A DNA stretch of 64,000 nt from Archangium lipolyticum (lineage in GTDB: Bacteria; Myxococcota; Myxococcia; Myxococcales; Myxococcaceae), in NCBI RefSeq assembly GCF_024623785.1, contig NZ_JANKBZ010000022.1, positions 1-64,000 of the forward strand. The letters are read 5' to 3'. Positions within the stretch are counted from its first letter, which is position 1; every line of letters begins with the position of its first letter. This document shows, piece after piece, positions 3,425 through 21,029 of this stretch. Under the pieces are notes generated by a model. The model did no database searches. It was not told the origin of the DNA and was given only the letters and a program-made list of their open reading frames with translations. Made by a program: the position numbers and the translations under genes.

Positions 3425-3443
3425 GGCCCGCTCCGGAATACGT

Positions 3444-4301
3444 ATGCCCCTGCCCAACCCCTGGCACGAGCTGCTCGAATCCTTCACGCACGTCAACCAA
3501 TACGACTCGTGGTTTCCTGGCCGGGTGAACTACCTGCGGGACTACACGCGCTGGCGGAACCAGGTGCGCCACGGACCGAACCTCCCGGCGACGGGGCCCG
3601 AGCGGCTGACGGTGGTCCTGCTGAGCTACCGGCGGGTGCGCAACATCGAGCCGATGGTGAACAGCCTGCTACGAGCGGACTTCGTCGGCCGCGTCCTGGT
3701 GTCCAACAACAATCCGGCCTACCGCATCTCGGACTGGGTGCGGGTGCGCGACGAGCGGCTGCACCTGGTGGATCAATCCGAGCGCCGGTACGCGGGCATC
3801 CGCTTCGAGCTGGCGCGCGGCGAACAGGGTGAGTACTTCGCCAGCATCGACGACGACACCTTCCTGTCACCCGAGCAGCTCCGGCAGCTCTTCACCATGC
3901 TCGTGACGGATCCGAGCACGCCCCACGGCATCCAGGGAGAGCTCTACAAGGGCCGGCCGGGAGAGCCGACCAACGACGATTGGAGGCCCGGGCTGGTCGG
4001 CGAGCGCCGGGTGGACGCGATCAACCGCGTGTACTTCTTCACCCGAGAGCACCTGGAGGAGCTCTACCGGCTGGCGGGCCTGCTGGGCCTGAACGTGCCG
4101 ACACTGGCCAACGGCGAGGATCTGCTGCTGAGCGCCTGTGGGCGACTCCGTCCGCGCGTCCATGACGTGGGTCCGGTGGCGCAGTGCCTCTCGGCACACC
4201 GGCTCGGGGTGGCCACGTGGCGCACCCGCCAGGACTTCTTCCAGGAGCGTACGGATCTGCTGCTGCGCCTGCGCCAGCTCAAACCCCTGGCCGACTCCTA
4301 G
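3444..4301 (+). CDS. Glycosyltransferase-like protein (GT64/GT2-type fold)
   Basis: This is a 285-residue soluble protein. The region around residues 53-75 (TVVLLSYRRVRNIEPMV) resembles the start of GT-A glycosyltransferases, in particular the exostosin C-terminal GT64 type. An acidic DDD triplet at residues 136-138 (ASIDDDTFLS) fits a metal and nucleotide-sugar binding DxD motif. There is no signal peptide or membrane segment. It follows the exporter by 19 bp and precedes the CmlA-like gene by 39 bp on the same strand, so it is probably part of the NRPS cluster and may glycosylate the peptide. The family call rests on motif resemblance only; donor and acceptor are unknown. Confidence 0.7.
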   Translation: MPLPNPWHELLESFTHVNQYDSWFPGRVNYLRDYTRWRNQVRHGPNLPATGPERLTVVLLSYRRVRNIEPMVNSLLRADFVGRVLVSNNNPAYRISDWVRVRDERLHLVDQSERRYAGIRFELARGEQGEYFASIDDDTFLSPEQLRQLFTMLVTDPSTPHGIQGELYKGRPGEPTNDDWRPGLVGERRVDAINRVYFFTREHLEELYRLAGLLGLNVPTLANGEDLLLSACGRLRPRVHDVGPVAQCLSAHRLGVATWRTRQDFFQERTDLLLRLRQLKPLADS

Positions 4302-4340
4302 CTCCCGACGATTCCTTCCCCCCTCCTCTACAGTAGACAC

Positions 4341-5924
4341 ATGACCATGTACCTCAAGCCCAACGTCGCCATCGAGCCGCTCTACAACCAGTGGTACACG
4401 TGGTGTTACCTGCTCTCACCCGCGACGGCGCCGCTGTACGTGACGAACCTGCACATCAAGGTGATGCAGTCGTTCGTGGCCAATCCGGACGTGCACGTGG
4501 CGGCGCTGAAGAACCCGGCGCTGATGGGAGGACCCTTCCTCAACTACCCGGCCTCGCGGGTGGCGGACGTGAAGGCGCTGTTGGATCGCACCCTGCGCGA
4601 GCAGGCGCACATGGTGGCCTTCACCAAGGCGGTGGCGGAGCTGGAGCAGCTGCTGGCCATCAATGCCACGGGCCCGTCGATGGAGAGCCTCTATCCGAAG
4701 GTGCCGGACGTGCTGCGCGGCTACGTGGAGCTGACGTACGACATGGTGCACCGCGCGAGCATCCGCTTCATCGAGCCGCTGCTGTACCACAGCCGCTACA
4801 ATCAGGAGTCGTCGCAGAGCGTGTTCCTGATGCAGGTGGACGGGGACGCGCGCAAGTTCATCTACAGTACGCCGCGGCTCGAGGGGGAGTCGCCGCTGTG
4901 GCTGAAGGTGCCCTTCCGCCACGAGGGCCTGGACGAGCTGTTCCGGATGCGCACGACGCCGGGCTCGCCGGGGAAGGTGGCGGAGATGCTGGGGGTGCCC
5001 GCGAGCGCGGCGAACGAGTTCGCGGCGCTCTTCACGGAGACGCCGCCGCGGCGCCCGGAGCGCTGGACGGGGGACGGGGTGCGCATGCGCTACTTCGGCC
5101 ACGCGTGCGTGCTGATGGAGTCCCGGGAGACGTCGGTGCTGACGGATCCGGTGATCAGCTACGAGTTCCCGACGGACCAGCCGCGCTTCACGCACGCGGA
5201 TCTGCCCGAGCGGATCGACTACATGGTGCTCACCCACGCGCACGCGGATCACCTGATGATGGAGACGCTGATCCAACTGCGTCACCGGGTGGGGACGGTG
5301 GTGGTGCCGCGCAACAACGGCGGAGGACTGGCGGATCCGTCACTGCGGCTGATGCTGGAGCACAACGGCTTCCGCAACGTGGTGGAGCTGGACGAGTTGC
5401 AGCGCCTCGCGATTCCGGGCGGGTCGATCACCGGGTTGCCGTTCATCGGTGAGCACTGCGATCTGTCGATCCAGGCGAAGCTCGCGCACCTGGTGCAGAT
5501 GGGAGGCAAGTCGTTCCTGATGGCGGCGGATTCGAACGCGCTGGAGCCGCGGCTGTACCAGCACCTGCGGGAGGTGGTGGGAGAGATCGACGTGCTGTGC
5601 CTGGGGATGGAGTGCGAGGGCGGGCCGATGAGCTGGATGTACGGGCCGCTATTGAGCCAGCCAGTGCCGCGCAAGGTGGACCAGTCGAGGAGACTGAACG
5701 GGTCGAACTGCGCGCGAGCCAGCGAGATCGTGAACCACCTGAACCCGAAGGAGGTCTACATCTACGCGATGGGCCAGGAGCCGTGGCTGAGACACGTGAT
5801 GGCGCTGGCGTACGACGAGAAGGCGCCGCAGATCGTCGAGTCCAACAAGTTGCTCGAGTACTGCCGGGGCCGGGGAATCCGAGCCGAGAGGCCGTACATC
5901 CAGATGGAGAAGGTGTTCGTCTGA
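4341..5924 (+). CDS. CmlA-like diiron beta-hydroxylase (MBL fold) for carrier-bound amino acids
   Basis: The protein has 527 residues: an N-terminal domain of about 245 residues with no metallo-beta-lactamase signature, then an MBL-fold domain. The metal motif is H299-A-H301-A-D303-H304. It is followed by E371 (in PFIGEHCDL) and D397 (in MAADSN). The 72- and 26-residue spacings between His, Glu and Asp equal those I recall for the CmlA ligands (His305, Glu377, Asp403), and the total length is close to that of CmlA, which beta-hydroxylates a carrier-bound amino acid in chloramphenicol biosynthesis. Ordinary MBL hydrolases lack this N-terminal half. The third motif position is His here, where I recall Glu in CmlA, so metal geometry may differ. 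Placement after an NRPS gene fits a tailoring role. A plain MBL hydrolase is the alternative. Confidence 0.8.
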   Translation: MTMYLKPNVAIEPLYNQWYTWCYLLSPATAPLYVTNLHIKVMQSFVANPDVHVAALKNPALMGGPFLNYPASRVADVKALLDRTLREQAHMVAFTKAVAELEQLLAINATGPSMESLYPKVPDVLRGYVELTYDMVHRASIRFIEPLLYHSRYNQESSQSVFLMQVDGDARKFIYSTPRLEGESPLWLKVPFRHEGLDELFRMRTTPGSPGKVAEMLGVPASAANEFAALFTETPPRRPERWTGDGVRMRYFGHACVLMESRETSVLTDPVISYEFPTDQPRFTHADLPERIDYMVLTHAHADHLMMETLIQLRHRVGTVVVPRNNGGGLADPSLRLMLEHNGFRNVVELDELQRLAIPGGSITGLPFIGEHCDLSIQAKLAHLVQMGGKSFLMAADSNALEPRLYQHLREVVGEIDVLCLGMECEGGPMSWMYGPLLSQPVPRKVDQSRRLNGSNCARASEIVNHLNPKEVYIYAMGQEPWLRHVMALAYDEKAPQIVESNKLLEYCRGRGIRAERPYIQMEKVFV

Positions 5925-7391: not shown

Positions 7392-7461
7392 GAATGCGGC
7401 CTCCACGGGGTAGAGGCCGCGGACTCTATGCGACTCGAGCCGCCCTCCCTATGGGGAAGTT

Positions 7462-7492
7462 TTGCCTTTCCTGACCTCCGGTCAAATGCTAT
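7462..7492 (+). promoter_or_regulatory. Possible promoter with internal palindrome
   Basis: TTGCCT (7462) and TGCTAT (7487) are separated by 19 bp. A TGACC-TCC-GGTCA inverted repeat (7472-7484) lies in the spacer, where a regulator could bind. The spacing is longer than optimal, so this is tentative. Confidence 0.25.
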
Positions 7493-7586
7493 CGGAAACA
7501 AGCAATCCCGTCTTTCACTGAGAAAACGGTCAGAAGCGGCACGGGGCCAGTCGCCTCGCGTCGCCCCACCCTGGAAGGAGACACCC

Positions 7587-9047
7587 TTGAGGATCTCGAG
7601 ATTCGTCACATCCCTGGCATTGGCAGGCGCGCTTTCCGCCTGTGGCGACGGCCTCCCGGCCGAGGCTCCCGGGCTCGAGCCCGTCGGGTCCGTCGGGTCC
7701 GCGCTGGACTGCGCCGCCATGAGTGCTCCCGTGTATCACCGCATCCGGCCGACGTCGGGTGACAGCCTCTACACGACCAACGCGAACGAGGCGGCCAACG
7801 CCGCGACGACCTACGGCTACACCGACGACCGCGGCGTGGCCTTCCGCGCCTCCACCGCCACGGGAACGGGGCTGTCCCCCGTCTACCGCATCTACAGCCC
7901 GAGCCGGGGCGAGCACTTCTGGACCATCGACGCGACGGAGAAGCAGAACCTCGTGAGCACGGGGGGCTTCACCACCGACGAGGGCATCGGCTTCTACGCC
8001 TCGAAGACGGCGGACCCGTGCCTCGTGCCCGTGTACCGCTACTCCAACACGGCGCTCAAGAAGCACCGCTTCGCCATCACCGACGCCGAGCGCAACAGCC
8101 TGAGCGCCGCCGGATGGGTCGACGAGGGCATCAAGCTCTACGCCGCGCCCTCCTCCACCCAGCCCATCGACACGAAGTTCACCTTCGTCGTCATCCCGGA
8201 CACGCAGAACGAGGTCGTCAACAACTCGACACTGATCGACCACCGCATGCAGTGGCTCGCCGACAACAAGTCCGCGCTCGACCTCCGCTTCGTGATGCAG
8301 ACCGGCGACATGATGAACTGGGACACGCCCGACCACATCCAGTACGAGCGCGCCAGCAATGCGCTCGAGAAGCTGGAAGCCGCCGGCATTCCCTACGCGC
8401 TCGCCATTGGGAATCATGACACGGCGGCCACCTGCACTGGCGGCGGTGCCTGCCCCGGCAACGTGAACGCCAACCTGCGCAACACCACCACGTTCAACAC
8501 GTACTTCCCGACGACGCGGTTCAAGGCGCTCGCTGGCGTGTACGAGACGGGGAAGTGTGACAATGCCTATCACACGTTCTCGGCGGGCGGCCTGAACTGG
8601 CTCGTGCTCAACCTGGAGTTGTGGGCCCGCACGGGCGCGGTCGAGTGGGCGAAGACGGTGCTGGCCCAGCATCCCCGCCACAACGTCATCGTCATCACCC
8701 ACTCACACCAGACGAGCAGCGGCGGCATCGAGCAGAGCAACGGTGGCTATGGCAACAACAGCCCCCAGTACGTGTTCGACAACGCGCTCAAGCAGTACGC
8801 CAACGTGCGGTTCATCTTCTCCGGCCACGTGGGAACCTCGGCCTACCGCGAGGTCACCGGCGTCCAGGGCAACAAGATCCACCAGATCCTGACGACCTAC
8901 CATGACTCGACGACGAACCCGACGCGGCTGATCGAGGTCGACACCGCCGCGAACACCTTCTCCACGCGCGTGTACTCGCCCTACACGAACGCGGAGAAGC
9001 AGGACGGCTCGAAGTTCACCATCAGCAACGTCTCCTGGGTCCGCTAG
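7587..9047 (+). CDS. Lipoprotein calcineurin-like phosphoesterase with DUF5648-type repeats
   Basis: This 486-residue exported lipoprotein begins at a TTG codon preceded by AAGGAG (7574-7579). The start is fixed by the signal peptide that follows, which ends in a lipobox (LSAC). Residues about 45-195 hold three tandem units of the DUF5648 type (VYHRIRP, VYRIYSPSRGEHFWT, VYRYSNTALKKHRF), a beta-propeller-like surface module. A metallophosphoesterase domain follows with IPDTQ, QTGDMMN, GNHD (residues 275-278), THSHQ and SGHVG, the complete two-metal ligand set. It should hydrolyse phosphoesters outside the inner membrane; the substrate is unknown. It may be secreted or tethered by the lipid. 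Confidence 0.87.
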   Translation: MRISRFVTSLALAGALSACGDGLPAEAPGLEPVGSVGSALDCAAMSAPVYHRIRPTSGDSLYTTNANEAANAATTYGYTDDRGVAFRASTATGTGLSPVYRIYSPSRGEHFWTIDATEKQNLVSTGGFTTDEGIGFYASKTADPCLVPVYRYSNTALKKHRFAITDAERNSLSAAGWVDEGIKLYAAPSSTQPIDTKFTFVVIPDTQNEVVNNSTLIDHRMQWLADNKSALDLRFVMQTGDMMNWDTPDHIQYERASNALEKLEAAGIPYALAIGNHDTAATCTGGGACPGNVNANLRNTTTFNTYFPTTRFKALAGVYETGKCDNAYHTFSAGGLNWLVLNLELWARTGAVEWAKTVLAQHPRHNVIVITHSHQTSSGGIEQSNGGYGNNSPQYVFDNALKQYANVRFIFSGHVGTSAYREVTGVQGNKIHQILTTYHDSTTNPTRLIEVDTAANTFSTRVYSPYTNAEKQDGSKFTISNVSWVR

Positions 9048-9596: not shown

Positions 9597-9628
9597 AAGT
9601 CGGTTGACTTGTTCAGTCGATTGACTTA
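9597..9628. promoter_or_regulatory. Tandem palindromic operator and probable promoter for the oxidative operon
   Basis: Two AGTC-N4-GACT palindromes begin at 9598 and 9615, 17 bp apart (AGTCGGTTGACT and AGTCGATTGACT). The pair can also be read as one larger imperfect inverted repeat, TTGACT-TGTTC-AGTCGA. TTGACT resembles a -35 box. The site lies about 50 bp before the mini-ORF and TetR1, the usual position for an autoregulated TetR operator. It is not present upstream of TetR2. Confidence 0.6.
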
Positions 9629-9675
9629 GTTCTTCTCGCGTGGGCTCGAGGACGTTCCAACCCCCGGAGGTCGTG

Positions 9676-9726
9676 ATGAGTGCCGACGACAGCAAGAAGC
9701 TCCTGGGAAAGGTCCCGGTGCGCTGA
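9676..9726 (+). CDS. Conserved 16-codon mini-ORF coupled to TetR1
   Basis: The ORF encodes MSADDSKKLLGKVPVR and has a GGAGG 5 nt upstream. Its stop shares one base with the TetR1 start (TGATG). A near-identical mini-ORF (MSADDSKQFLGKVPVLW, 15552-15605) precedes TetR2 in the same arrangement, while TetR1 has no good ribosome binding site of its own. It is probably a leader that couples translation to the regulator; a function as a peptide is possible but unproven. Confidence 0.5.
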   Translation: MSADDSKKLLGKVPVR

Positions 9727-10370
9727 TGGGCCCGAGCAAATCCGACCGGGGCAGCGAGACGCGCGAGCTTCTCCTCGTCACCGCCGAGCGCCTGTTCGCC
9801 GAGCACGGGGTCGAGGCCGTCTCCAATCGCCAGATCAGCGAGGCGGCCGGCCAGTCCAACAACTTCGCTGTTGGCTACCACTTCGGCTCCAGGGAGGAGC
9901 TCATCCTGGCGATCGTGCGCCGGCATTCCGAGTCGATGGATCGGCGGCGGACCGAAATGCTCGCGAAGATCACCGGCTCGCCCGACCTGCGCGACTGGGT
10001 GTCCTGCTTCGTGCGGCCGACCACCGAGCACCTCGCCTCGCTGGGCACGCCCTCCTGGTATGCGCGGTTCATCGCCCAGGTGATGACCCACCCCGCCTTG
10101 CGTGAGCGCGTGAGCAAGGAGTCGTTCACCTCGCCCTCGCTGCAGCAGGCCATCGAAGGCATGTCCCGGCTGGTCCCGCGTCTGCCCGAGGACGTGCAGC
10201 AGGAGCGTAACGACATGGGCCGGTTGCTGATCGTGCACATGTGCGCCGAGCGGGAACGCGCGCTGCACGCGGGCACTGCCCAGCCCCGCTCGACCTGGGA
10301 CTCCATCGCGGCCGGTCTGGTCGACGCGCTCGTCGGCTTGTGGCTGGCCCCCGTCTCCGCCCGCCGGTGA
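9726..10370 (+). CDS. TetR-family transcriptional regulator 1
   Basis: This 214-residue repressor has an N-terminal helix-turn-helix: ETRELLLVTAERLFAEHG, then VSNRQISEAAGQSNN and the conserved YHFGS. The C-terminal ligand domain is of the TetR_C type. About four-fifths of its residues match the second regulator at 15602, so the two are recent duplicates with possibly different ligands. It heads a run of same-strand genes with gaps below 80 bp and probably represses them from the tandem palindromes at 9597-9628. The start overlaps the mini-ORF stop. Confidence 0.92.
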   Translation: MGPSKSDRGSETRELLLVTAERLFAEHGVEAVSNRQISEAAGQSNNFAVGYHFGSREELILAIVRRHSESMDRRRTEMLAKITGSPDLRDWVSCFVRPTTEHLASLGTPSWYARFIAQVMTHPALRERVSKESFTSPSLQQAIEGMSRLVPRLPEDVQQERNDMGRLLIVHMCAERERALHAGTAQPRSTWDSIAAGLVDALVGLWLAPVSARR

Positions 10371-10447
10371 CCTCGCTGGACGAGCCCGACACACCCGGCA
10401 AAGGCAACACATCCGTCTGAAACCACCGAAGTGAAGAAGGAATGCGC

Positions 10448-12265
<1,818 letters not shown>

Positions 12266-12291
12266 TTCATCCACGCCCCCCGGAGGCCCCC

Positions 12292-13944
12292 ATGCATCGA
12301 TTCCCCTACAAGTCCCTGCTCGCCTGGCTGTTGATGGCGAGCTCCCAGGCCCTGGCCGCCCCTCCACCACCGGCCTATCGCCAGGAGGTGGTGGTGGCCG
12401 GCTCCCACTTCCAGGGCGTCCACGGGCTCGCCGTCGATGGCAAGGGGCACCTGCTGGCCAGCAATCTGCTCGGCCAGTCGGTCCACTCCATCGACTTGAA
12501 GGATGGCAAGGTATCCACCCTGGTGGGGCCTCCGCTGGGCGGCGCGGATGACGTGACCCTGGGTCCCGACGGCTCGGTCTACTGGACCGGTTATTTCACC
12601 GGCCAGTTGATGCGGCGCACCCCGGATGGAAAGACGCGCGTCATCGCCAGGGATCTGCCGGGCCTCAACTCGCTGGCCTTCCGCCGCGATGGCAGGTTCT
12701 ACGTCACCCAGCTCGGCCGGGGCGATGCGCTGTGGGAAGTGGACCCGAGCGGGAAGAAGCCGCCTCGGAAGGTCCTCTCCGAGCCCGGCTTCCTCAACGG
12801 CTTCGAGTTCGGCCCGGACGACAAGCTCTACGGTCCGATCCTGACCAAGGGGCAGATCGCCCGCGTGGACGTGGACACGGGGAAGATCGAGACCGTGGCG
12901 GAGGGCTTCACGATTCCGGTCGCCGTCAATTTCGACGCGCGCCGGGAGAACCTCTATGTGGTCGACGCGGCGCGTGGCGAGTTGGTGCGCGTCCGGCTGC
13001 CCACGGGCGCCAAGGAGGTCGTCGCGAAGCTGCCCACCGGGCTCGACAACCTGGCCGTGGGCCCGGATGACCAGGTGTACGTGTCCAACATGGTGGACAA
13101 CGACATCCGCGTGGTCAATCCCGCCGATGGCTCCGTCCGGCCCCTCGTCGAGGCGCGCTTGAGCGTGCCCTCCGGGCTCGCCGTCGCGCCGGATGATCCG
13201 GACGAGCAGCTGTACGTGGCGGATGTGTATGCCTTCCGCCGGGTGGGCGGGCGCGATGGGAAGATCAACCAGACGACCCGGGTCCTCTCCACCCGGATGA
13301 ACTTCCCCATGAACGTGAGCCTGAGCGCGAAGCATGTGGTGCTGAGCACTGCCTACCTGGGCGGCCACAGCAACGTGCAGGTGCTGGATCGCGCCTCTGG
13401 CGAGGTCCTGCGGACGATTCCCAATGCGAATGGCGTCCAGGGCGTGCTCGAGCTCGCCGACGGCACGCTGCTCCTCGCCGAGGCCGCCACGGGCCGGCTG
13501 GTGCGGGTGGATGCCGCCGAGCCCGCGGGGACCACGATGCTTGCCGAGGGCCTGGAGGGGCCCGTGGGCCTCGCGGCCGACACGGAGGCGAAGGAGCCGG
13601 GGGTGTACGTCACGGAGGTGCGCTCGGGGAAGGTGACCCGGGTGCGCCTGTCGGATGGCGCCCGGCGCACGGTGGCCAAGGGCCTCAAGGCCCCCGAGGG
13701 CATCGCCCGGCATCCGGATGGAGGGCTGATCGTCGCCGAGGTGGGCCGCAAGCGCCTGGTGCGCATCGAGCCGGCCACGGGCCGGTTGACCGTGCTCGCG
13801 AGCGGCCTGCGCATCGGTCTGCCCGAGAACGCGGGCATGCCGCCGGGCTACATCCCCACGGGGGTCGCGGTGGGTGGCTCGGGAACCATCTACCTGACGT
13901 CCGACATCGAGAGCGCCCTCTACCGCTTCGTCCCCGTGCCCTGA
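12292..13944 (+). CDS. Exported SMP-30/NHL-type beta-propeller (possible lactonase)
   Basis: This 550-residue protein has a signal peptide ([15 protein letters not shown]) and then repeated propeller blades of the NHL or SMP-30/gluconolactonase type, for example [45 protein letters not shown] and [17 protein letters not shown]. Members include calcium-dependent lactonases. Its place directly behind the monooxygenase makes a lactone-opening role attractive, but the signal peptide would put it outside the cytoplasm, which complicates a shared pathway. The ATG at 12292 has GGAGG 5 nt upstream and starts the signal peptide; an in-frame ATG at 12262 overlaps the previous stop and is less likely. 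Confidence 0.85.
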
Positions 13945-13960
13945 AAGAGAGAGAACGGCA

Positions 13961-14773
13961 ATGAAGGTCCAGAACAAGGTTGTCGTCGTGACCGGTGGCG
14001 GAAATGGCATGGGCAGGGAGCTGGTCCTGGCTCTCCTGTCGAAGGGCGCGAGCGTCGCCGCCGTTGACATCAACGCATCCGCCCTCGAGGAGACCCTCGC
14101 GCTGGCGGGGCGGAATCGGGACAGGCTGGCCACCTATACCCTGAACATCACGGACCGGGCCCTGGTGGAGGCGCTCCCGGAGCAGGTCATCTCCCGCTTC
14201 GGGGCTGTCGACGGCATCATCAACAACGCGGGCATCATTCAACCCTTTGTCAGGTTGAAGGACCTCGACTACGCGGCGATCGAACGGGTGATGAACGTCA
14301 ACCTGTTCGGAACGCTCTACATGACCAAGGCGTTCCTGCCGCACCTGCTCGCACGCCCGGTGGCGCACATCACGAACATCTCCAGCATGGGTGGATTCCT
14401 GCCCGTTCCGGGGCAGACCATCTACGGAGCGGCCAAGGCGGCCGTGAAGCTCCTGACGGAAGGCTTGAGCTCGGAGCTCCTGGGGACGAACGTGAAGGTC
14501 ACGGTGGTCTTCCCGGGAGCGATTGGCACGAACATCGTGGTGAACTCTGGCGTGACGATGGACAGCCAGCAGGAGAAGCGCCGGGAGGGGCCGCCGCCCA
14601 AGGTGCTGGCTCCTGGCAAGGCCGCGCAGATCATCCTCGAGGGCATCGAGAACGACCAGTATCGCGTCCTGGTGGGAGCCGATGCCAGGCTCATGGATGC
14701 CATCTACAGACTGAACCCCCAGCGCGCGGCGCGGTTCATCTACACCCAGATGAGTGCCTTGTTGCCGAAGTAG
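13961..14773 (+). CDS. Short-chain dehydrogenase/reductase
   Basis: This 270-residue classical SDR has a cofactor motif TGGGNGMG near residue 12, the D of AAVDIN (which favours NAD over NADP), the structural NNAG, and a catalytic Ser-Tyr-Lys set in NISSMG and YGAAKAA. SDRs interconvert alcohols and ketones. In this operon it would oxidise the P450-made alcohol to the ketone that the Baeyer-Villiger enzyme uses; that order is inference. It follows the propeller gene by 16 bp. Confidence 0.93.
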   Translation: MKVQNKVVVVTGGGNGMGRELVLALLSKGASVAAVDINASALEETLALAGRNRDRLATYTLNITDRALVEALPEQVISRFGAVDGIINNAGIIQPFVRLKDLDYAAIERVMNVNLFGTLYMTKAFLPHLLARPVAHITNISSMGGFLPVPGQTIYGAAKAAVKLLTEGLSSELLGTNVKVTVVFPGAIGTNIVVNSGVTMDSQQEKRREGPPPKVLAPGKAAQIILEGIENDQYRVLVGADARLMDAIYRLNPQRAARFIYTQMSALLPK

Positions 14774-14814
14774 GTCGTCCCCAAAACCCTGTCACCGTCC
14801 GAGGACACCGCCCC

Positions 14815-15507
14815 ATGCTCGATCCCAATACCCTGACCCTGCCCGAAAACGCCTCCTTGTTCACCCGCCTGAACCTGGCGCTCAAAATCCTGAAGGTGAT
14901 CAAGGGCAATGAGGGGAATCCCGTCTATGGCCAGACGCTCAACGCCTGCCTGGACTACAACGTCTATGAATCACTCGCCCAGCGGCTCCAGAGCAGCGCG
15001 TATTGGCGCCGCATGCTGTCCGAGCGCCCTTCCCTGGAGAGCAGGAATCTCGACCTGGACGCCCTCGAGCGCCTGCCCGAGGGAACGCTCGGCCATGCGT
15101 ACGCGCGCTACTTCCGCGACAACAAGATCTCGCCCTTCGAGACGACGCTCGAGATCAAGAACGACATCGACTTCATCGCCAAGCGCTACCGTGAGACGCA
15201 TGATCTGTTGCACCTGGTGACGGGCTACGGCACGGACGTGATGGGCGAGATGGAGCTGCAGGCGTACGCCCTCGGCAATCTGGGCATCCGGACCGCTGCG
15301 CTCATCGTGCTGGTTGGCACGGTCGGACAACTCAAGGACCGGCAGTCCGGAGTCGATTCGTCCGAGTACATGCGGCGGGTGTGGGCCGCGTACCACCGTG
15401 GCCGCGCGTCCCCGCTGTTCCTGGACTTCTGGTTCGAGGACCACTGGGAGACCCCCGTGGCCACGCTGAGCGCGAGCCTGTGCGCCCCCGCGACGCAGTT
15501 GCACTGA
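14815..15507 (+). CDS. Coq4 family protein
   Basis: This 230-residue protein has the Coq4 zinc motif HDxxHx11E (HDLLHLVTGYGTDVMGE) and the conserved surroundings DFIAKRYRETHD and AYALGN. Coq4 acts in ubiquinone assembly in eukaryotes and some proteobacteria. The organism makes menaquinone (men genes at 37573-44943), so this copy inside an oxidative operon probably acts on another hydrophobic substrate or binds lipid-like intermediates. No membrane segment is clear. The family call is firm; the function here is open. Confidence 0.9.
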   Translation: MLDPNTLTLPENASLFTRLNLALKILKVIKGNEGNPVYGQTLNACLDYNVYESLAQRLQSSAYWRRMLSERPSLESRNLDLDALERLPEGTLGHAYARYFRDNKISPFETTLEIKNDIDFIAKRYRETHDLLHLVTGYGTDVMGEMELQAYALGNLGIRTAALIVLVGTVGQLKDRQSGVDSSEYMRRVWAAYHRGRASPLFLDFWFEDHWETPVATLSASLCAPATQLH

Positions 15508-15551
15508 CCCGGCTGAGCCTTCTGGCAGGCACTGATTCAACAGAGGTCATG

Positions 15552-15605
15552 ATGAGCGCCGACGACAGCAAGCAGTTCCTGGGAAAGGTCCCGGTGCTCT
15601 GGTGA
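15552..15605 (+). CDS. Conserved 17-codon mini-ORF coupled to TetR2
   Basis: The ORF encodes MSADDSKQFLGKVPVLW and its stop overlaps the GTG start of TetR2 (GTGA). It is a diverged copy of the mini-ORF before TetR1, with few changes over 16 aligned codons, so frame and overlap have survived the duplication. Confidence 0.45.
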   Translation: MSADDSKQFLGKVPVLW

Positions 15606-16246
15606 GCTCGAGCAAATCCGACCGGGGCAGCGAGACGCGCGAGCTTCTCCTCGTCACCGCCGAGCGCCTGTTCGCCGAGCACGGGATCGAGGCCGTCTCC
15701 AACCGCCAGATCAGCGAGGCGGCCGGCCAGTCCAACAACTCCGCCGTCGGCTACCACTTCGGCTCCAAGGAGGACCTCGTGGTGGAGATCGTCCGCCGGT
15801 ACTCCGAGTCGGTGGAGCTGCGGCGGACCGAGATGCTCGCGGAGATCACCGGCTCGCCCGACCTGCGTGACTGGGTGTCCTGCCTCGTGCGACCCACCAC
15901 CCAGCACCTCGCCTCGTTGGGCATCCCCTCCTGGCACGCACGGTTCGTCGCCCAGATGACGACCCATCCCGCCTTGCGCGAGCGCGTGAGCAAGGAGTCG
16001 TCCACCTCGCAGTCGCTGCGGCAGGCCCTCGAAGGCATGTTCCGGCTCATCCCGCGTCTGCCCGAGGACGTGCGGCAGGAGCGTAGCGACATGGGACGGT
16101 TGATGCTCGTTCACATGTGCGCCGAGCGGGAACGCGCGCTGCACGCGGGCACCGCGAACCCACGCTCGACGTGGACATCCACCGCGGACGGATTGATCGA
16201 CGCACTCGTCGGATTATGGCTGGCCCCCGTCTCCGCCCGGCGGTGA
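15602..16246 (+). CDS. TetR-family transcriptional regulator 2
   Basis: This 214-residue paralogue of the regulator at 9726 begins at GTG inside the stop of the mini-ORF. The helix-turn-helix is nearly unchanged (VSNRQISEAAGQSNN, YHFGSKEDL), so the two may bind related operators. Differences are scattered through the ligand domain. The duplicated DNA starts near the mini-ORF (about 15543) and ends at the stop; the tandem palindromes upstream of TetR1 were not copied. It sits between the Coq4-like and ferredoxin reductase genes and may divide the operon into two controlled halves. Confidence 0.92.
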   Translation: MSSSKSDRGSETRELLLVTAERLFAEHGIEAVSNRQISEAAGQSNNSAVGYHFGSKEDLVVEIVRRYSESVELRRTEMLAEITGSPDLRDWVSCLVRPTTQHLASLGIPSWHARFVAQMTTHPALRERVSKESSTSQSLRQALEGMFRLIPRLPEDVRQERSDMGRLMLVHMCAERERALHAGTANPRSTWTSTADGLIDALVGLWLAPVSARR

Positions 16247-16319
16247 GCCCGCGGAACGAAAACGGCACACCCCGTGACGCAGTCGGCGTTCGAGCCGGGC
16301 GCACGGAGAAAGGAACGTC

Positions 16320-17570
16320 GTGACAATGGAAGAGCGCATCGTCATCGTGGGAGCCGGCCAGGCCGGAGGCGAGCTGGCCGCCGGCTTGCGCAAGCAGGGC
16401 TACAAGGGGCGCGTCCTCCTGTTGGGAGACGAGGCGCATCCGCCCTACCAGCGGCCTCCGCTGTCGAAGGGATTCCTGCAGGGAAAGGTGGCGCTGACCG
16501 ACCTCTACCTCAAGCCGCTGGCGAGCTATGAGCGCTTCGACATCGAGCTCAAGCCCGGCACGCGCGTCGAGGCCATCGACCGCGCCACGAAGGAGGTCTC
16601 CCTGGGGGATGGGAGCCGGCTGGCCTACGACAAGCTCGTCCTGGCCACGGGAGGCCGCGCACGGCCCTTGAGTGTTCCCGGGCTGGCGGGTGCCCGGCCC
16701 GAGAACCTGTTCTCCCTGCGGTCCATCGCCGACGTCGAGGCGATGCGCGGGAGGTTCATCCCCGGCAACCGCCTGGTCATCATCGGTGGCGGCTACGTGG
16801 GGCTCGAGGTCGCGGCCGTGGCCGTGCAGCTCGGGTTGCGTGTGACGCTGCTGGAGGCGGCGCCTCGCCTGCTCTGCCGGGTGACGGGTCCGGAGGTGTC
16901 CGCGTTCATCGAGAAACTCCACCGCGAGCGGGGCGTGGAGCTCCGGCTCTCGTGCGAGGTGCGGAGCATGGAGCTCGACGAGGCGCGCCGCCAGGTGCGC
17001 GAGGTGGGCTTCGCGTGTCAGGGCGTGCAGGAGCGGCTCGAGGCCGACCTGGTGCTGGTGGGAATCGGCCTCATTCCGAACACGGAGCTGGCCTCCGCGG
17101 CGGGCCTGGCCGTCGACAATGGCATCGTCGTGGACGAGTACGCCTGTACGGCCGATCCGGACATCCTCGCCATCGGGGACTGCGCCAATCAACCCAGCGC
17201 CTACACGGGTGGACGCATCCGTCTGGAATCCGTGCCCAATGCCATCGAGCATGCGCGCGTCGCGGCGGCCACGCTGATGGGCAAGCGGGAGCCCTCCGCC
17301 GCCATTCCCTGGTTCTGGTCGGACCAGTACGGCTTGAAGCTGCAGATGGTGGGGCTCTCCACCGGCCACGAGCAGTGCGTCACGCGAGGTTCCGTCGAGG
17401 GCAAGGAGTTCTCGGCCTTCTACCTCAAGGACAGACGGGTCATCGCCGCGGATGTCATTGGCCGGCCCGCGGAGTTCATGGCCGCGAAGCGGCTGGTCTC
17501 GAGCCGGGTGCAGGTGGATGCGGCCCGCCTGGGTGACGCGGCCGTCCCGCTCGCCAGCCTCGCCGCGTGA
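16320..17570 (+). CDS. NAD(P)H-ferredoxin reductase (putidaredoxin reductase type)
   Basis: This 416-residue flavoprotein has an FAD motif VIVGAGQAGGELA at the start, YQRPPLSKGFL, ATGGRARPL, an NAD motif VIIGGGYVGLEVAA near residues 155-168, and the FAD-ribityl motif DILAIGDCAN. It passes electrons from NADH to the [2Fe-2S] ferredoxin encoded next, completing a three-component class I P450 system. The GTG at 16320 is chosen because AAAGGAA lies 5 nt upstream; an ATG at 16326 is the alternative. Confidence 0.94.
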   Translation: MTMEERIVIVGAGQAGGELAAGLRKQGYKGRVLLLGDEAHPPYQRPPLSKGFLQGKVALTDLYLKPLASYERFDIELKPGTRVEAIDRATKEVSLGDGSRLAYDKLVLATGGRARPLSVPGLAGARPENLFSLRSIADVEAMRGRFIPGNRLVIIGGGYVGLEVAAVAVQLGLRVTLLEAAPRLLCRVTGPEVSAFIEKLHRERGVELRLSCEVRSMELDEARRQVREVGFACQGVQERLEADLVLVGIGLIPNTELASAAGLAVDNGIVVDEYACTADPDILAIGDCANQPSAYTGGRIRLESVPNAIEHARVAAATLMGKREPSAAIPWFWSDQYGLKLQMVGLSTGHEQCVTRGSVEGKEFSAFYLKDRRVIAADVIGRPAEFMAAKRLVSSRVQVDAARLGDAAVPLASLAA

Positions 17571-17602
17571 AGACAGTCAAACCCAACGATCCAGGAGGAC
17601 AT

Positions 17603-17929
17603 ATGGCGAAGATCAAGTTCATCGAGGCGAATGGGAAGCAGCACGAAGTCGAGGCGGAGGAGGGACAGTCCGTCATGCAGGCGGCGACGAACAACCTCGT
17701 GCCGGGAATCGTCGCCGAGTGTGGAGGCTTCGCCAGCTGCGCGACCTGCCACGGCTACGTCGATGAGGCCTGGCTGACGAAGCTCCCCCCTCCCGATGCG
17801 GCGGAAGAGGGAATGATCGCGTGCGCCTTCCACGTGCAGCCCAACAGCCGGCTGACCTGTCAGCTCAAGATGACGCCCGCGCTGGATGGGCTGGTGGTCC
17901 GGCTTCCCGTCTCGCAGACGGAAGAGTGA
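17603..17929 (+). CDS. [2Fe-2S] ferredoxin (putidaredoxin/adrenodoxin type)
   Basis: This 108-residue protein carries the C-x5-C-x2-C cluster motif (CGGFASCATC) and the fourth Cys in MIACAF, with the ferredoxin start AKIKFIEANGK. The ATG at 17603 has AGGAGG just upstream. It lies between its reductase and the P450 and should shuttle single electrons between them. Confidence 0.95.
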   Translation: MAKIKFIEANGKQHEVEAEEGQSVMQAATNNLVPGIVAECGGFASCATCHGYVDEAWLTKLPPPDAAEEGMIACAFHVQPNSRLTCQLKMTPALDGLVVRLPVSQTEE

Positions 17930-17982
17930 GGACCGGACAGGTCCCCGCGCTTTTTTCTCCAACACCCAGAAGAGGTTCGACC

Positions 17983-19218
17983 ATGAGCGCCTTTACCGGA
18001 CAGAAGCTGGACAAGATTCCCGCGCACATCCCGCCGGAGCTGGTCTACGAATACGACAACGCCAGGGATCCGCGGATGCTGGAGGATCCGCACGCCCGGA
18101 TGCGCTCCCTCATCCTCGAGGCTCCGCCCATCTTCTTCTCCCCATGCAACGGGGGCCAGTGGTTCGTGACCCGGAAGAAGACGATCGTGGACATCACGAT
18201 GAATCCGGAGGTCTACAGCAACGCCTTCCTCGCGGCCTCGGGGGAACACTCGGGGGAGCACAAGGAGCAGCAGCAGGGTCTGGTGATGCTGCCCATCGCG
18301 GTGGATCCGCCGAAGCACACGGCGTACCGGGCGCCGCTCAACCAGCCGCTGGCGGCCAAATCCGTTGCCGGACTCGAGACGGCGATCCGGACCATGACGA
18401 ACGAGCTCATCGACAAGGTGCTCGGCGCGGGACGCTGCGACTTCCTCTCGGAGATCGCCGAGCCGCTGCCCGTCACGTTGTTCATGAAGCTGGCCGGCAT
18501 GCCGACCAACCGCCTCGCGGAGTTCCGCCACCTGGCCACGCAGGCGACGTCCGCCACGGTGGATGCAGCGACCCGCGAGGCGACGTTCAAACAAATCGCG
18601 GGGATCCTCACGGAGACCATCAAGGCCCGGCAGGAGAAGCGCGAGGATGATCTGATCAGCCGGCTGCTCGACGCGAACATCAACGGCCGCAACCCCACGT
18701 TCCATGAGATGTTGGGCTACAGCATCACCCTGTTCCTCGGGGGGCTGGAGACCGTGGTGAATGCCCTGAGCTTCGGTGTCCGGCACCTGGCGCGCGATCA
18801 GGAGTTGCAGGCCAGGCTCCGGGCCGACCCCAGCCTCCTGCCTGGAGCCATCGAGGAGCTGCTGCGGCTCTATAGCGTCGCGTCCACGCCCCGGCGGGTG
18901 ATGCGCGACGTGGTCTGCGAGGGCGTCCAGTTCAAGGAGGGCGACACGGTGTTGTTGCTCCTGCCCGCGGCCAACTACGACGACGCGGCGTTCCCGAACC
19001 CCGAGCAGTTCATCCTGGGCCGGCCGGAGCAGCACATGACGTTCAACACGGGTCCGCACCGGTGCGTCGGTCTGAATCTGGCCCGCCTGGAGATGAAGGT
19101 GTTCTACCAGGAGTGGTTGAAGCGCGTCCCGCCGTTCCGGCTGGATCCCCAGAACCCGCCTCGGTTCGTGGGTGGCTTCAACCTGGCGGTCACGAGCCTG
19201 CCACTGATCTGGGAATAG
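17983..19218 (+). CDS. Cytochrome P450
   Basis: This 411-residue soluble bacterial P450 has an I-helix LGGLETV (acid-Thr pair kept), an ExxR helix (EELLRLY), the Arg of TPRRVMRDV, and a heme-binding FNTGPHRCVG with the axial Cys. There is no membrane anchor, as in class I bacterial P450s. Ferredoxin and reductase genes lie immediately upstream, which is the P450cam arrangement. It probably hydroxylates an unactivated carbon of a terpenoid or similar hydrophobic molecule; the substrate is unknown. The ATG at 17983 begins a normal P450 N-terminus. Confidence 0.95.
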   Translation: MSAFTGQKLDKIPAHIPPELVYEYDNARDPRMLEDPHARMRSLILEAPPIFFSPCNGGQWFVTRKKTIVDITMNPEVYSNAFLAASGEHSGEHKEQQQGLVMLPIAVDPPKHTAYRAPLNQPLAAKSVAGLETAIRTMTNELIDKVLGAGRCDFLSEIAEPLPVTLFMKLAGMPTNRLAEFRHLATQATSATVDAATREATFKQIAGILTETIKARQEKREDDLISRLLDANINGRNPTFHEMLGYSITLFLGGLETVVNALSFGVRHLARDQELQARLRADPSLLPGAIEELLRLYSVASTPRRVMRDVVCEGVQFKEGDTVLLLLPAANYDDAAFPNPEQFILGRPEQHMTFNTGPHRCVGLNLARLEMKVFYQEWLKRVPPFRLDPQNPPRFVGGFNLAVTSLPLIWE

Positions 19219-19228
19219 ACAGAGACCC

Positions 19229-20683
19229 ATGCACCCGTCAGAAGAGCCACGAGCCACCCGATTCTGGCCGTTCATGTTCGCCCTCTTCGTGGGGTCGTTC
19301 ATGTCCGTGCTCAGCTCCAGCACGATCACGATCGCCATTCCCGAGTTGCAGCGGCATTTCGGGGCTGATCTCTCGCAGCTCCAGTGGACCCTGACGGGGT
19401 TCATGCTCGCCATGGGCACGAGCGCGCCGCTCACCGGCTATCTGGGTGGGCGCTTCAGTTTCAAATGGCTGTACGTGGCCACCCTGGTGGGCTTCATCCT
19501 GGCGTCCGTGCTGTGTGGGGTGGCCTGGGATGCGGGCTCGCTCGTGGCCTTCCGGTTCCTGCAGGGCGCGTTCTGCGGCGCCATCATGCCCGTGACCATG
19601 ACGCTCATCTACCAGCTCGTTCCACGGGAGCGGCAGGCGCTGGCCGCCAGTCTCTGGAGCCTGTCGGCGAGCCTCGCTCCCGCGTTCGGGCCGACCTTCG
19701 CGGGCTGGTTGATCACCCTGGGCAACTGGCGATGGTTGTTCTTCATCAACGTTCCGCTCGGCGTCGTCGCCGTGGGTCTGGCCGTGCGGACCATTCCCTT
19801 CTACCGCCTGAAGGCCCCGAAGGCATTCGATCTCCCCGGGCTGCTCACCGTCATCACCGGCACCCTGTCGCTGCTGATCGCCCTGAGCCAGGGAAGGGAG
19901 TGGGGGTGGACCCATGGGAAGACAGTGTCCCTGTTCCTGCTCGGGACGCTGTCACTGATCGTCTTCGTCGTCAGGGAGCTGAAGACGAGCGCTCCGCTGC
20001 TCGACCTGCGTGTGCTCGCGAATGGCCGCTATCTGGTGACGCTGCTCATCTCGAGCATCATCACGATCAGCCTGTATTCGGGCGCGTTCCTCGTGCCCGT
20101 GTTCCTGCAGAAGGTCCAGGGCGTGACGGCGCTCGAGACCGGGTTGATCCTCCTCCCCGCCTCCCTGGCCATGGCGCTCCTGATGCCCCTGGTCGGGCGC
20201 CTGTATGGCCCGATCGGGCCGAGCACGCTCATGACGGCTGGCGTCCTGTTGATCGCGGGGGGCACGTATGCCTTGAGCCGTTTGACGCCGGAGGTTCCAC
20301 ACTTCTACATGTTGATGTGGATGGTGGTGCGGAACGTAGGCATCTCCCTCTCCATGATGCCGGCCAGCAACGCGGGCATGGAGCAGATACCGCGCGAGCT
20401 GAGCGGCCACGCCTCGTCCATCAGCAACTGGTTGCGAAACGTGTTCGGAGCGTTCTCGATCGCCATCTTCACGTCGCTCCTGTCCACCTTCACGGCCCGG
20501 GAGGCGGAGGATCTCGTGCGGCAGGGGATGACGGATCGCCGTCACATCGAGTTGTTCTCGTTCGTGGAGGGCATCAACGACGTCTACCTGGTCGCCACGA
20601 TCATCACCCTGGTGGCGGTGCCCCTCAGCCTGGGGATCCGCAAGAAGCCGGTGGTGCTCGCGGCCTCCGCGGAAGCACGCTGA
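19229..20683 (+). CDS. MFS transporter, DHA2 (14-TM, EmrB/QacA type)
   Basis: This 484-residue protein has about fourteen hydrophobic segments and family motifs such as SSSTITIAIPELQRHF in the first helix, LTGYLGGRFSFKW in loop 2-3 and LAPAFGPTFAGWL (motif C of drug-proton antiporters). It starts 10 bp after the P450 stop and ends the operon. It probably exports the pathway product or a toxic substrate, or less likely imports the substrate. TetR control of DHA2 exporters is common. Confidence 0.93.
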   Translation: MHPSEEPRATRFWPFMFALFVGSFMSVLSSSTITIAIPELQRHFGADLSQLQWTLTGFMLAMGTSAPLTGYLGGRFSFKWLYVATLVGFILASVLCGVAWDAGSLVAFRFLQGAFCGAIMPVTMTLIYQLVPRERQALAASLWSLSASLAPAFGPTFAGWLITLGNWRWLFFINVPLGVVAVGLAVRTIPFYRLKAPKAFDLPGLLTVITGTLSLLIALSQGREWGWTHGKTVSLFLLGTLSLIVFVVRELKTSAPLLDLRVLANGRYLVTLLISSIITISLYSGAFLVPVFLQKVQGVTALETGLILLPASLAMALLMPLVGRLYGPIGPSTLMTAGVLLIAGGTYALSRLTPEVPHFYMLMWMVVRNVGISLSMMPASNAGMEQIPRELSGHASSISNWLRNVFGAFSIAIFTSLLSTFTAREAEDLVRQGMTDRRHIELFSFVEGINDVYLVATIITLVAVPLSLGIRKKPVVLAASAEAR

Positions 20684-20703
20684 GGACACCGCTGAGTCCG
20701 GCA

Positions 20704-20727
20704 CCGGGGCGGCGGTGGCCGCCCCGG
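20704..20727 (+). terminator. Stem-loop ending the oxidative operon
   Basis: A perfect 10-bp GC stem (CCGGGGCGGC / GCCGCCCCGG) with a GGTG loop lies 20 bp after the MFS gene. It lacks a T-tract, so termination may need Rho or be partial. Confidence 0.55.
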
Positions 20728-21029
20728 CGCCCTACCCGCTCACCGGCCTGGTCAGTGGCGAGTGCCATGGCGACTGCGAAACGGTTGGAGCTCAGCGAGG
20801 CAGTCGGGCGGGCCTCCGCGAAGGCCGTAAGCGAGCCGTAACCCCGCTCGCGGACCGGCAGGCAGGAGTGTGCAACCTCGTGCCCAGGAGCCAGCCCGTG
20901 CCCGAGCATGGGCTGCCGCGTGCCGCGCCCTCGCATGCTCGTTCGTCGCTATCGGAGCGCGCTTGGATACTCCGGACACCCCCGCCAGGACTCGCCAGGT
21001 CCTGACTTGATTGGAGGACCGACCCGGCC
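20728..21029. other. Non-coding interval
   Basis: No convincing gene lies here. Short open frames on both strands lack ribosome binding sites and protein-like composition. It should hold the promoter of the DUF6310-like gene, but no clear -35/-10 pair is visible. Confidence 0.5.

What the first reader, a model, noticed from the sequence alone, without database searches (positions are those of the whole stretch)
9597..20727. Camphor-like oxidative operon: P450, ferredoxin, reductase, SDR, Baeyer-Villiger enzyme and lactonase-like protein
Seen: eleven same-strand genes with gaps below about 80 bp between a tandem palindrome and a hairpin. Known: in Pseudomonas camphor degradation, a P450 with ferredoxin and reductase, a dehydrogenase, a Baeyer-Villiger enzyme and lactone opening act in order, under a TetR repressor (CamR). 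Inference: this operon runs the same chemistry (alcohol, ketone, lactone, acid) on an unknown terpenoid or alicyclic compound, with an exporter at the end. I know of no such pathway in myxobacteria.
Basis: partly seen in the sequence, partly recalled or inferred. Interest (0 to 1): 0.65.

Follow-up and report, generated by a model that had tools for sequence, protein, structure and literature searches.

The report
Myxobacterial P450-Coq4 oxidation operon
A group of co-regulated myxobacterial genes resembles the bacterial camphor-oxidising enzyme chain, but its steadiest extra member is a relative of a ubiquinone-making protein in a bacterium that appears not to make ubiquinone, which hints at an unrecognised role for that protein family.

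Summary
The operon is real: ten + strand genes (not eleven) at 9726-20683, after a tandem operator (9598-9626) and before a hairpin. The P450 chain is truly camphor-like: the reductase's best solved match is putidaredoxin reductase, and the P450 is nearest CYP101 (about 36% identical) but has Leu or Phe where CYP101 has Tyr96. The Baeyer-Villiger enzyme is type I, unlike camphor's. The finding does not name what I find most interesting: a Coq4-family protein (14815-15507) with intact HDxxHx11E motif, in a genome with MenD and no UbiG over cut-off. All six genomes of the genus have the P450 with Coq4 beside it; the Baeyer-Villiger gene is linked in three. The operator pattern gave 17 sites in 10 of 12 genomes; 16 stand at these units or at a second unit with the same TetR and an SDR. 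So one regulon does P450 and dehydrogenase, often Baeyer-Villiger, oxidation, with an efflux-type pump. Against a fixed pathway: the Baeyer-Villiger block is elsewhere in three genomes, and an NRPS cluster end lies 3.7 kb upstream here (also near it in one relative). Substrate unknown; a hydrophobic alicyclic or terpenoid compound is my best guess.

The parts
9598..9626 (.). tandem operator AGTCN4GACT-N5-AGTCN4GACT, presumed TetR binding site
   Evidence: conserved at the orthologous units; reversed-pattern control 0 in 12 genomes; binding not tested
9726..10370 (+). TetR1 regulator
   Evidence: PF00440 and PF17939; 88% identical orthologue in G003
10442..12265 (+). type I Baeyer-Villiger monooxygenase
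   Evidence: PtlE model 759.5 bits (cut-off 1100); nearest solved 5mq6, 465.1 bits; fingerprint [12 protein letters not shown]
12292..13944 (+). beta-propeller protein (SMP-30/gluconolactonase-like, ScyD/ScyE family), N-terminus looks like a signal peptide; possible lactonase
   Evidence: signal peptide judged by eye from the translation
13961..14773 (+). short-chain dehydrogenase
   Evidence: PF00106; TGGGNGMG and YGAAK motifs; 75% identical SDR under the same operator in G015
14815..15507 (+). Coq4-family protein with HDLLH-X11-E metal motif
   Evidence: PF05019 103.8 bits (cut-off 22.9); nearest solved 3msq and 6e12; motif
15602..16246 (+). TetR2, duplicate of TetR1 (177 of 214 residues identical), without its own operator here
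16320..17570 (+). putidaredoxin-reductase-type ferredoxin reductase
   Evidence: 1q1r 405.7 bits; PF07992 and PF14759
17603..17929 (+). putidaredoxin-class [2Fe-2S] ferredoxin
   Evidence: Cys pattern
17983..19218 (+). cytochrome P450, CYP101-like
   Evidence: heme motif FNTGPHRCVG and GGLET
19229..20683 (+). DHA2 (EmrB/QacA) MFS transporter of an efflux family
   Evidence: TIGR00711 341.5 bits over cut-off 230.2
20700..20731 (+). hairpin after the last gene, no following T run

Best explanation
An inducible oxidation-and-export unit. A hydrophobic alicyclic or terpenoid ligand releases the TetR repressor from the tandem operator. NAD(P)H electrons pass through reductase and ferredoxin to a CYP101-like P450, which hydroxylates the substrate; the SDR oxidises the alcohol to a ketone; the type I Baeyer-Villiger enzyme, where present, makes the lactone or ester, perhaps opened by the propeller protein; the MFS pump exports the product. 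The Coq4-family protein is a core part of the P450 step, most likely binding the isoprenoid-like substrate or removing a carboxyl group oxidatively, not making ubiquinone. Shown by sequence: gene content, homology, linkage, shared operator. Inferred: order of steps, substrate class, ligand, direction of transport, role of Coq4.
For: P450 chain homologous to the camphor chain. A search with the P450 alone found orthologues of 81-91% identity in the 5 other genomes of the genus, the next full matches listed being 28-36%; all 6 of these P450 loci carry Coq4. Second genus: TetR-BVMO-Coq4-FdR-Fd-P450-MFS in G101 and G102, the same without FdR in G100. Operator pattern (up to 1 mismatch) in 12 whole genomes: 17 sites in 10 genomes, 16 at these units or at a second TetR unit, 1 unrelated (G005:C232); reversed control 0. 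The second unit, in 4 genomes of the other genus, carries an SDR, and in G100 also the FdR missing from its main unit. Of 10 P450 units under the operator, 9 have Coq4 and 6 BVMO. MenD over cut-off, no UbiG over cut-off.
Against: In G001, G002 and G005 the BVMO-propeller-SDR-Coq4 block is elsewhere, without the operator and beside a different, divergent TetR. G015 keeps two operator sites but has no P450 orthologue (best 31%): one site precedes a lone Coq4, the other TetR-SDR. One P450 unit in G100 lacks Coq4. The second-genus units were first met around Coq4 copies, so their Coq4 count is biased. An NRPS cluster end lies 3.7 kb upstream here and near the G003 unit. No ligand, substrate or activity is known. 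The propeller's signal-peptide-like start makes a cytoplasmic lactone an awkward substrate.
Confidence: 0.57

Rival explanations
1. Biosynthesis: the operon tailors and exports an endogenous metabolite, such as a terpenoid lactone (compare pentalenolactone) whose synthase lies elsewhere, or the product of the neighbouring NRPS cluster.
For: BVMO matches the pentalenolactone D synthase model over its whole length (759.5 bits); efflux-family transporter at the end; the genome has 4 terpene-synthase domain hits on other contigs; NRPS condensation, ABC transporter, glycosyltransferase-like and CmlA-type hydroxylase genes end 3.7 kb upstream on the same strand, and the 93% identical hydroxylase lies about 11 kb upstream of the G003 unit.
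Against: BVMO is below that model's cut-off of 1100; P450 is closer to CYP101 (248 bits) than to the pentalenolactone synthase model (114 bits); nearest PF19086 hit on the same contig over 130 kb from the P450 units and operators of 10 genomes; the extra operator sites of the second genus lead to TetR-SDR units; in G001, G002, G004 and G005 no close hydroxylase relative lies near the unit.
Confidence: 0.25
2. Catabolism: the operon feeds an alicyclic compound into central metabolism as a carbon source, as camphor does in Pseudomonas.
For: camphor-type P450 chain; Coq4, P450, ferredoxin and a BVMO-like enzyme stand near acyl-CoA dehydrogenases and an acyl-CoA synthetase on two sphingomonad plasmids.
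Against: none of the ten genes is a CoA ligase, thiolase or acyl-CoA dehydrogenase; the only transporter is of an efflux family.
Confidence: 0.12
3. Two independent systems placed side by side: a TetR-BVMO block and a TetR-P450-MFS block that share no substrate.
For: each block has its own TetR, and in G003 and G004 its own operator; the blocks are apart in 3 of 6 genus genomes.
Against: together in 3 of 6 genomes of one genus and in 3 of the 4 genomes of a second genus that I looked at; there one TetR and one operator precede both; the window's two TetRs are duplicates (177 of 214 identical).
Confidence: 0.12

Closest known systems
Camphor 5-monooxygenase system (P450cam/putidaredoxin/putidaredoxin reductase) and CYP101 relatives such as CYP101J2 and CYP101D2
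   Same: class I chain of homologous parts; reductase best match is putidaredoxin reductase (405.7 bits); the P450's best solved matches are CYP101 and P450cam
   Different: about 36% identity to CYP101J2 (144 of about 405); Leu or Phe in place of Tyr96; type I BVMO, SDR and Coq4 instead of the camphor pathway's later enzymes (the latter recalled)
PtlE/PntE-type Baeyer-Villiger enzymes and polycyclic ketone monooxygenase (5mq6; that name recalled)
   Same: type I BVMO, whole-length match
   Different: below the PtlE equivalog cut-off; no PF19086 terpene synthase within 130 kb of a P450 unit
COQ4 of the coenzyme Q pathway and Nostoc Alr8543 (6e12)
   Same: Pfam Coq4 over cut-off; HDxxHx11E motif intact, as described in PMC9774615 (passages read)
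   Different: genome has MenD and no UbiG over cut-off; the gene sits in a P450 regulon
Sphingomonad plasmid clusters with Coq4, P450, ferredoxin and BVMO-like enzyme (Sphingobium yanoikuyae pF2, Sphingopyxis fribergensis pSfKp5.2)
   Same: Coq4, P450, 2Fe-2S ferredoxin and a BVMO-like enzyme within about 12 kb
   Different: proteins only about 25-45% identical, with acyl-CoA genes and a different gene order

Membership tests
Camphor (CYP101A1-type) system | P450 with homologous 2Fe-2S ferredoxin and FAD reductase | tested here: met
Camphor (CYP101A1-type) system | CYP101 family identity (40% rule, recalled) | tested here: not met
   about 36% to CYP101J2 and to 4dxy by counting identical letters; best plasmid match 39.1%; not every named CYP101 was compared
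Camphor (CYP101A1-type) system | substrate-binding tyrosine at position 96 (numbering recalled) | tested here: not met
   Leu in the window and 8 others, Phe in 3, of 12 P450s aligned; Tyr in 4 of the 5 CYP101 chains printed, Ala in 4dxy
Camphor (CYP101A1-type) system | FMN type II diketocamphane monooxygenase (recalled) | tested here: not met
   the BVMO here is type I
Camphor (CYP101A1-type) system | TetR-family repressor with palindromic operator | tested here: inconclusive
   TetR gene and conserved palindrome present; binding and orthology to CamR not tested
PtlE/PntE pentalenolactone D synthase | NCBIfam NF045818 cut-off 1100 bits | tested here: not met
   759.5 bits
Type I Baeyer-Villiger monooxygenase | two Rossmann motifs and FxGxxxHxxxW(P/D) (motif recalled) | tested here: met
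Coq4 family | Pfam PF05019 gathering score | tested here: met
   103.8 bits, cut-off 22.9
Coq4 family | HDxxHx11E metal motif | tested here: met
   motif from PMC9774615
Coq4 as ubiquinone enzyme | host has a ubiquinone pathway | tested here: not met
   no UbiG over cut-off, MenD present; other Ubi genes not searched
SMP-30 lactonase | metal-binding catalytic residues and lactonase activity | tested here: inconclusive
   SGL score over cut-off; best solved matches of the profile are designed propellers, PknD and LRP2; catalytic residues not checked

The most novel reading that the evidence does not exclude
The Coq4 family is not only a ubiquinone family: one branch is a dedicated, metal-dependent partner of class I P450s that works on isoprenoid or alicyclic substrates, perhaps by oxidative decarboxylation or by presenting the substrate. 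It has multiplied in this group of myxobacteria and stands beside P450s in sphingomonads and on a cyanobacterial plasmid too.
Probability: 0.3. Interest if true: 0.75.

Novelty: new variant of a known kind. Interest (0 to 1): 0.5.

Why it matters
An enzymatic role of COQ4 in ubiquinone synthesis has been reported only lately (PMC12938788, passages read). A small bacterial version that sits with a P450 under one operator, in a genome that seems to make menaquinone, would make another function of the family testable in vitro. The operator is nearly unique in genomes of 9.4-13.8 Mb, so the regulator's ligand can be sought directly. The operon also offers a self-contained class I P450 with its own partners and a BVMO.

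Tried and rejected
Camphor as substrate: held unlikely because of the Tyr96 change. Link to terpene synthases: PF19086 searched in 12 genomes, 10 of them with the operator; nearest same-contig hit to a P450 unit or operator is about 137 kb (G100); the separate BVMO block of G001 has one a little over 40 kb away. Other terpene-synthase families and PKS genes were not searched. Link to the NRPS cluster upstream: the CmlA-type gene was searched in 6 genomes of the genus only; in the stretches of 15 other loci that I held, the four NRPS-side genes gave only ABC-transporter matches of about 30%, but the G003 stretch stopped short of it. Methyl jasmonate as ligand: RNA-seq of Archangium sp. Cb G35 (PMC6997564: outline, passages, Results part 1 of 2, Discussion part 1 of 2 read) lists no P450, TetR or MFS gene among the named upregulated genes; a P450 is down 34-fold and an FAD oxidoreductase up 111-fold, neither of which I could match to this operon, and I do not know whether that strain carries it. 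A general Coq4-P450 link: among 19 Coq4 loci from 10 of 17 genomes that carry a BVMO relative, 2 had a P450 and 3 a BVMO-type match, so the link recurs but is not general. Function for the leader ORFs: found, at up to 5 substitutions, only in G000 and G003. Another menaquinone route: TIGR03700 gave no match. Literature: no paper held both 'Coq4' and 'Baeyer-Villiger', none 'Coq4 family protein' and 'gene cluster', none 'Coq4', 'cytochrome P450', 'gene cluster' and 'myxobacteri'; one held 'Coq4' and 'myxobacteri' (PMC9712229), saying that a Coq4 gene with the disorazol cluster is not needed for disorazol (one passage read). Searches gave listings.
Full report
Observation. The stretch holds ten same-strand genes at 9726-20683 with gaps of 10 to 94 bp, after a tandem palindrome at 9598-9626 and before a hairpin at about 20700-20731. 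Order: TetR1, BVMO, propeller protein, SDR, Coq4, TetR2, ferredoxin reductase, ferredoxin, P450, MFS transporter. The finding does not mention Coq4.

Surroundings. Upstream on the same strand lie genes of an NRPS cluster cut by the contig start: carrier and condensation domains (48-1784), ABC transporter (1697-3424), glycosyltransferase-like (3444-4301) and a CmlA-type hydroxylase (4341-5924), then DUF2911, a DUF5648-metallophosphoesterase protein and a gene without Pfam match. Downstream are two DUF genes and then minus-strand genes such as ornithine cyclodeaminase-like, nucleoside diphosphate kinase and succinyl-CoA ligase. The CmlA-type gene has a 93% identical copy in G003 about 11 kb upstream of that genome's unit; in G001, G002 and G005 the best copies are 63% identical and far away, and G004 has only weak matches. 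The NRPS neighbour is thus shared by two of six genus genomes.

Camphor likeness. Among solved structures the reductase is closest to putidaredoxin reductase (405.7 bits against 306.2 for the next enzyme). The ferredoxin is in the putidaredoxin class (putidaredoxin 99.9 bits, best match 3hui 117.2). The P450's best matches are CYP101J2, CYP101D relatives and P450cam (247.8 to about 190 bits). Counting identical letters in the printed alignment gives 144 over about 405 residues for CYP101J2. In 4 of the 5 CYP101 chains printed a tyrosine stands four residues before the proline of P-x3-DPP (Tyr96, numbering recalled); the fifth, 4dxy, has alanine. At that place the window has leucine; of 12 related myxobacterial P450s, the window's included, 9 have leucine and 3 phenylalanine. 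The camphor pathway's zinc alcohol dehydrogenase and type II BVMO (recalled) have no counterpart; here are an SDR and a type I BVMO with intact fingerprint, nearest 5mq6 (465.1 bits) and the PtlE model (759.5 bits, cut-off 1100).

Conservation and modules. Searched in 39 genomes, the window's included, the P450 has orthologues of 81-91% identity in the 5 other genomes of the genus, plus two short C-terminal remnants; the next full matches listed are about 28-36%. All 6 P450 loci carry Coq4. G003 has the full ten-gene order; G004 has TetR-BVMO-Coq4-TetR-FdR-Fd-P450-P450-MFS. G001, G002 and G005 have a unit of Coq4, TetR, FdR, Fd, P450 and MFS and hold BVMO-propeller-SDR-Coq4 elsewhere, beside a different divergent TetR and without the operator. 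In a second genus, of the four genomes looked at, G101 and G102 have TetR-BVMO-Coq4-FdR-Fd-P450-MFS, G100 the same without FdR, and G015 no P450 orthologue. These second-genus units were found around Coq4 copies, so their Coq4 content is biased. Counting P450 units under the operator, 9 of 10 have Coq4 and 6 of 10 BVMO; the exception for Coq4 is a second unit in G100. A further P450 copy in G102 (82.7% identical) lies beside another Coq4 without the operator.

Regulon. The pattern AGTCN4GACT-N5-AGTCN4GACT, one site with a mismatch, stands at 11 places in nine loci. Over 12 whole genomes with up to one mismatch it gave 17 sites in 10 genomes and none in G018 and G019; the reversed control gave 0 in all. 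In the window's genus 8 of 9 sites are at these units; the ninth (G005:C232, one mismatch) has no related gene near it. In each of four genomes of the second genus there is a further site in front of another copy of the TetR: followed by an SDR about 30% identical to the window's in G101 and G102, by FdR-P450-SDR in G100, and by an SDR 75% identical to the window's in G015. G100's missing FdR is thus under the same operator. In G015 the other site precedes a lone Coq4. I read this as good support that P450 chain, Coq4, MFS and SDR, with BVMO where linked, serve one purpose. In the window TetR2 has no operator of its own (best 7 mismatches), whereas G003 and G004 have one there.

Coq4. The protein passes PF05019 (103.8 bits), matches solved Coq4 relatives 3msq and 6e12 and keeps HDLLH-X11-E, the metal motif described in PMC9774615. 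That paper reports geranylgeranyl monophosphate bound in the obsolete entry 3KB4 and oleic acid with magnesium in its replacement 6E12 (passages read). A review says that COQ4 carries out oxidative decarboxylation of a prenylated precursor in human cells (PMC12938788, passages read). The window's genome has MenD over cut-off, inside this window at 42297-43625 on the minus strand, and no UbiG over cut-off (best 66.2 bits against 102.95), so a ubiquinone role is unlikely; other Ubi genes were not searched. Coq4 is found in 58 of 179 genomes of the phylum searched and 5 to 7 times in each of the six genus genomes. Of 79 copies in the loci I read, picked by hand, 24 have a P450 within 5 kb: 9 of 9 in these units and 15 of 70 others (one P450 counted for two Coq4 copies), the latter with several P450 groups and with gaps under 200 bp in 9. 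Taking at most 74 P450 candidates in 12.6 Mb, my own arithmetic gives about 5 of 70 by chance; orthologous loci are not independent, so this is support, not proof. Elsewhere, two sphingomonad plasmids hold Coq4 with P450, ferredoxin and a BVMO-like enzyme (about 29-30% to ours); Novosphingobium pNL2 has two Coq4 genes, one after an acyclic terpene utilisation gene; a Synechococcus plasmid has one near a P450 annotated in two pieces. In genomes carrying a BVMO relative the link was rare (2 of 19 Coq4 loci with a P450).

Mechanism. Best reading: ligand-released TetR control; P450 hydroxylation; SDR oxidation; Baeyer-Villiger oxidation where the gene is linked; possible lactone opening; export. 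The absence of CoA-ligase and beta-oxidation genes among the ten and the efflux-family transporter favour transformation and export over use as food. Coq4 is placed at the P450 step because it is the most constant partner; whether it binds the substrate, removes a carboxyl group or does something else is open. Biosynthetic tailoring, of a terpenoid or of the neighbouring NRPS product, is the main rival. The order of steps and the substrate are inferred.

Verdict. Real, conserved in two genera of one family, correctly recognised as camphor-like for its P450 chain, but not a camphor pathway, and with a more interesting member than was noticed. I rate it a new variant of a known kind, interest 0.5, with a bolder case about the Coq4 family at probability 0.3.

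Noticed in passing
window 48-5924 (+): End of an NRPS gene cluster (carrier and condensation domains, ABC transporter, glycosyltransferase-like, CmlA-type diiron hydroxylase), cut by the contig start; hydroxylase 93% identical in G003 about 11 kb from that genome's unit.
   Followed up: partly
window 42297-43625 (-): MenD of menaquinone synthesis, 473 bits, in the same window.
   Followed up: partly
window 9641-10372 and 15517-16248: The two TetR genes are duplicates, 177 of 214 residues identical; the stretch 9701-9880 is nearly identical in DNA (56, 59 and 56 of 60 bases), which may be gene conversion.
   Followed up: partly
window 9676-9726 and 15549-15605: A 16-18 codon leader ORF (MSADDSKKLLGKVPVR and MMSADDSKQFLGKVPVLW) ends at each TetR start; found, at up to 5 substitutions, only in G000 and G003.
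   Followed up: partly
L173 (G000:C12), L174 (G005:C57), L145 (G001): Remnants of the unit: C-terminal pieces of the P450 at 86% identity, the one in G005 near another Coq4 and P450s, and a Coq4-TetR with a truncated reductase.
   Followed up: no
L213, L217: Coq4-BVMO-Coq4 groups in two genomes of the second genus, without the operator.
   Followed up: no
L182 (Novosphingobium aromaticivorans pNL2): Two Coq4-family genes, one directly after an AtuA acyclic terpene utilisation gene.
   Followed up: no
window 7428-9047 (+): DUF5648 plus metallophosphoesterase protein just upstream of the operon.
   Followed up: no
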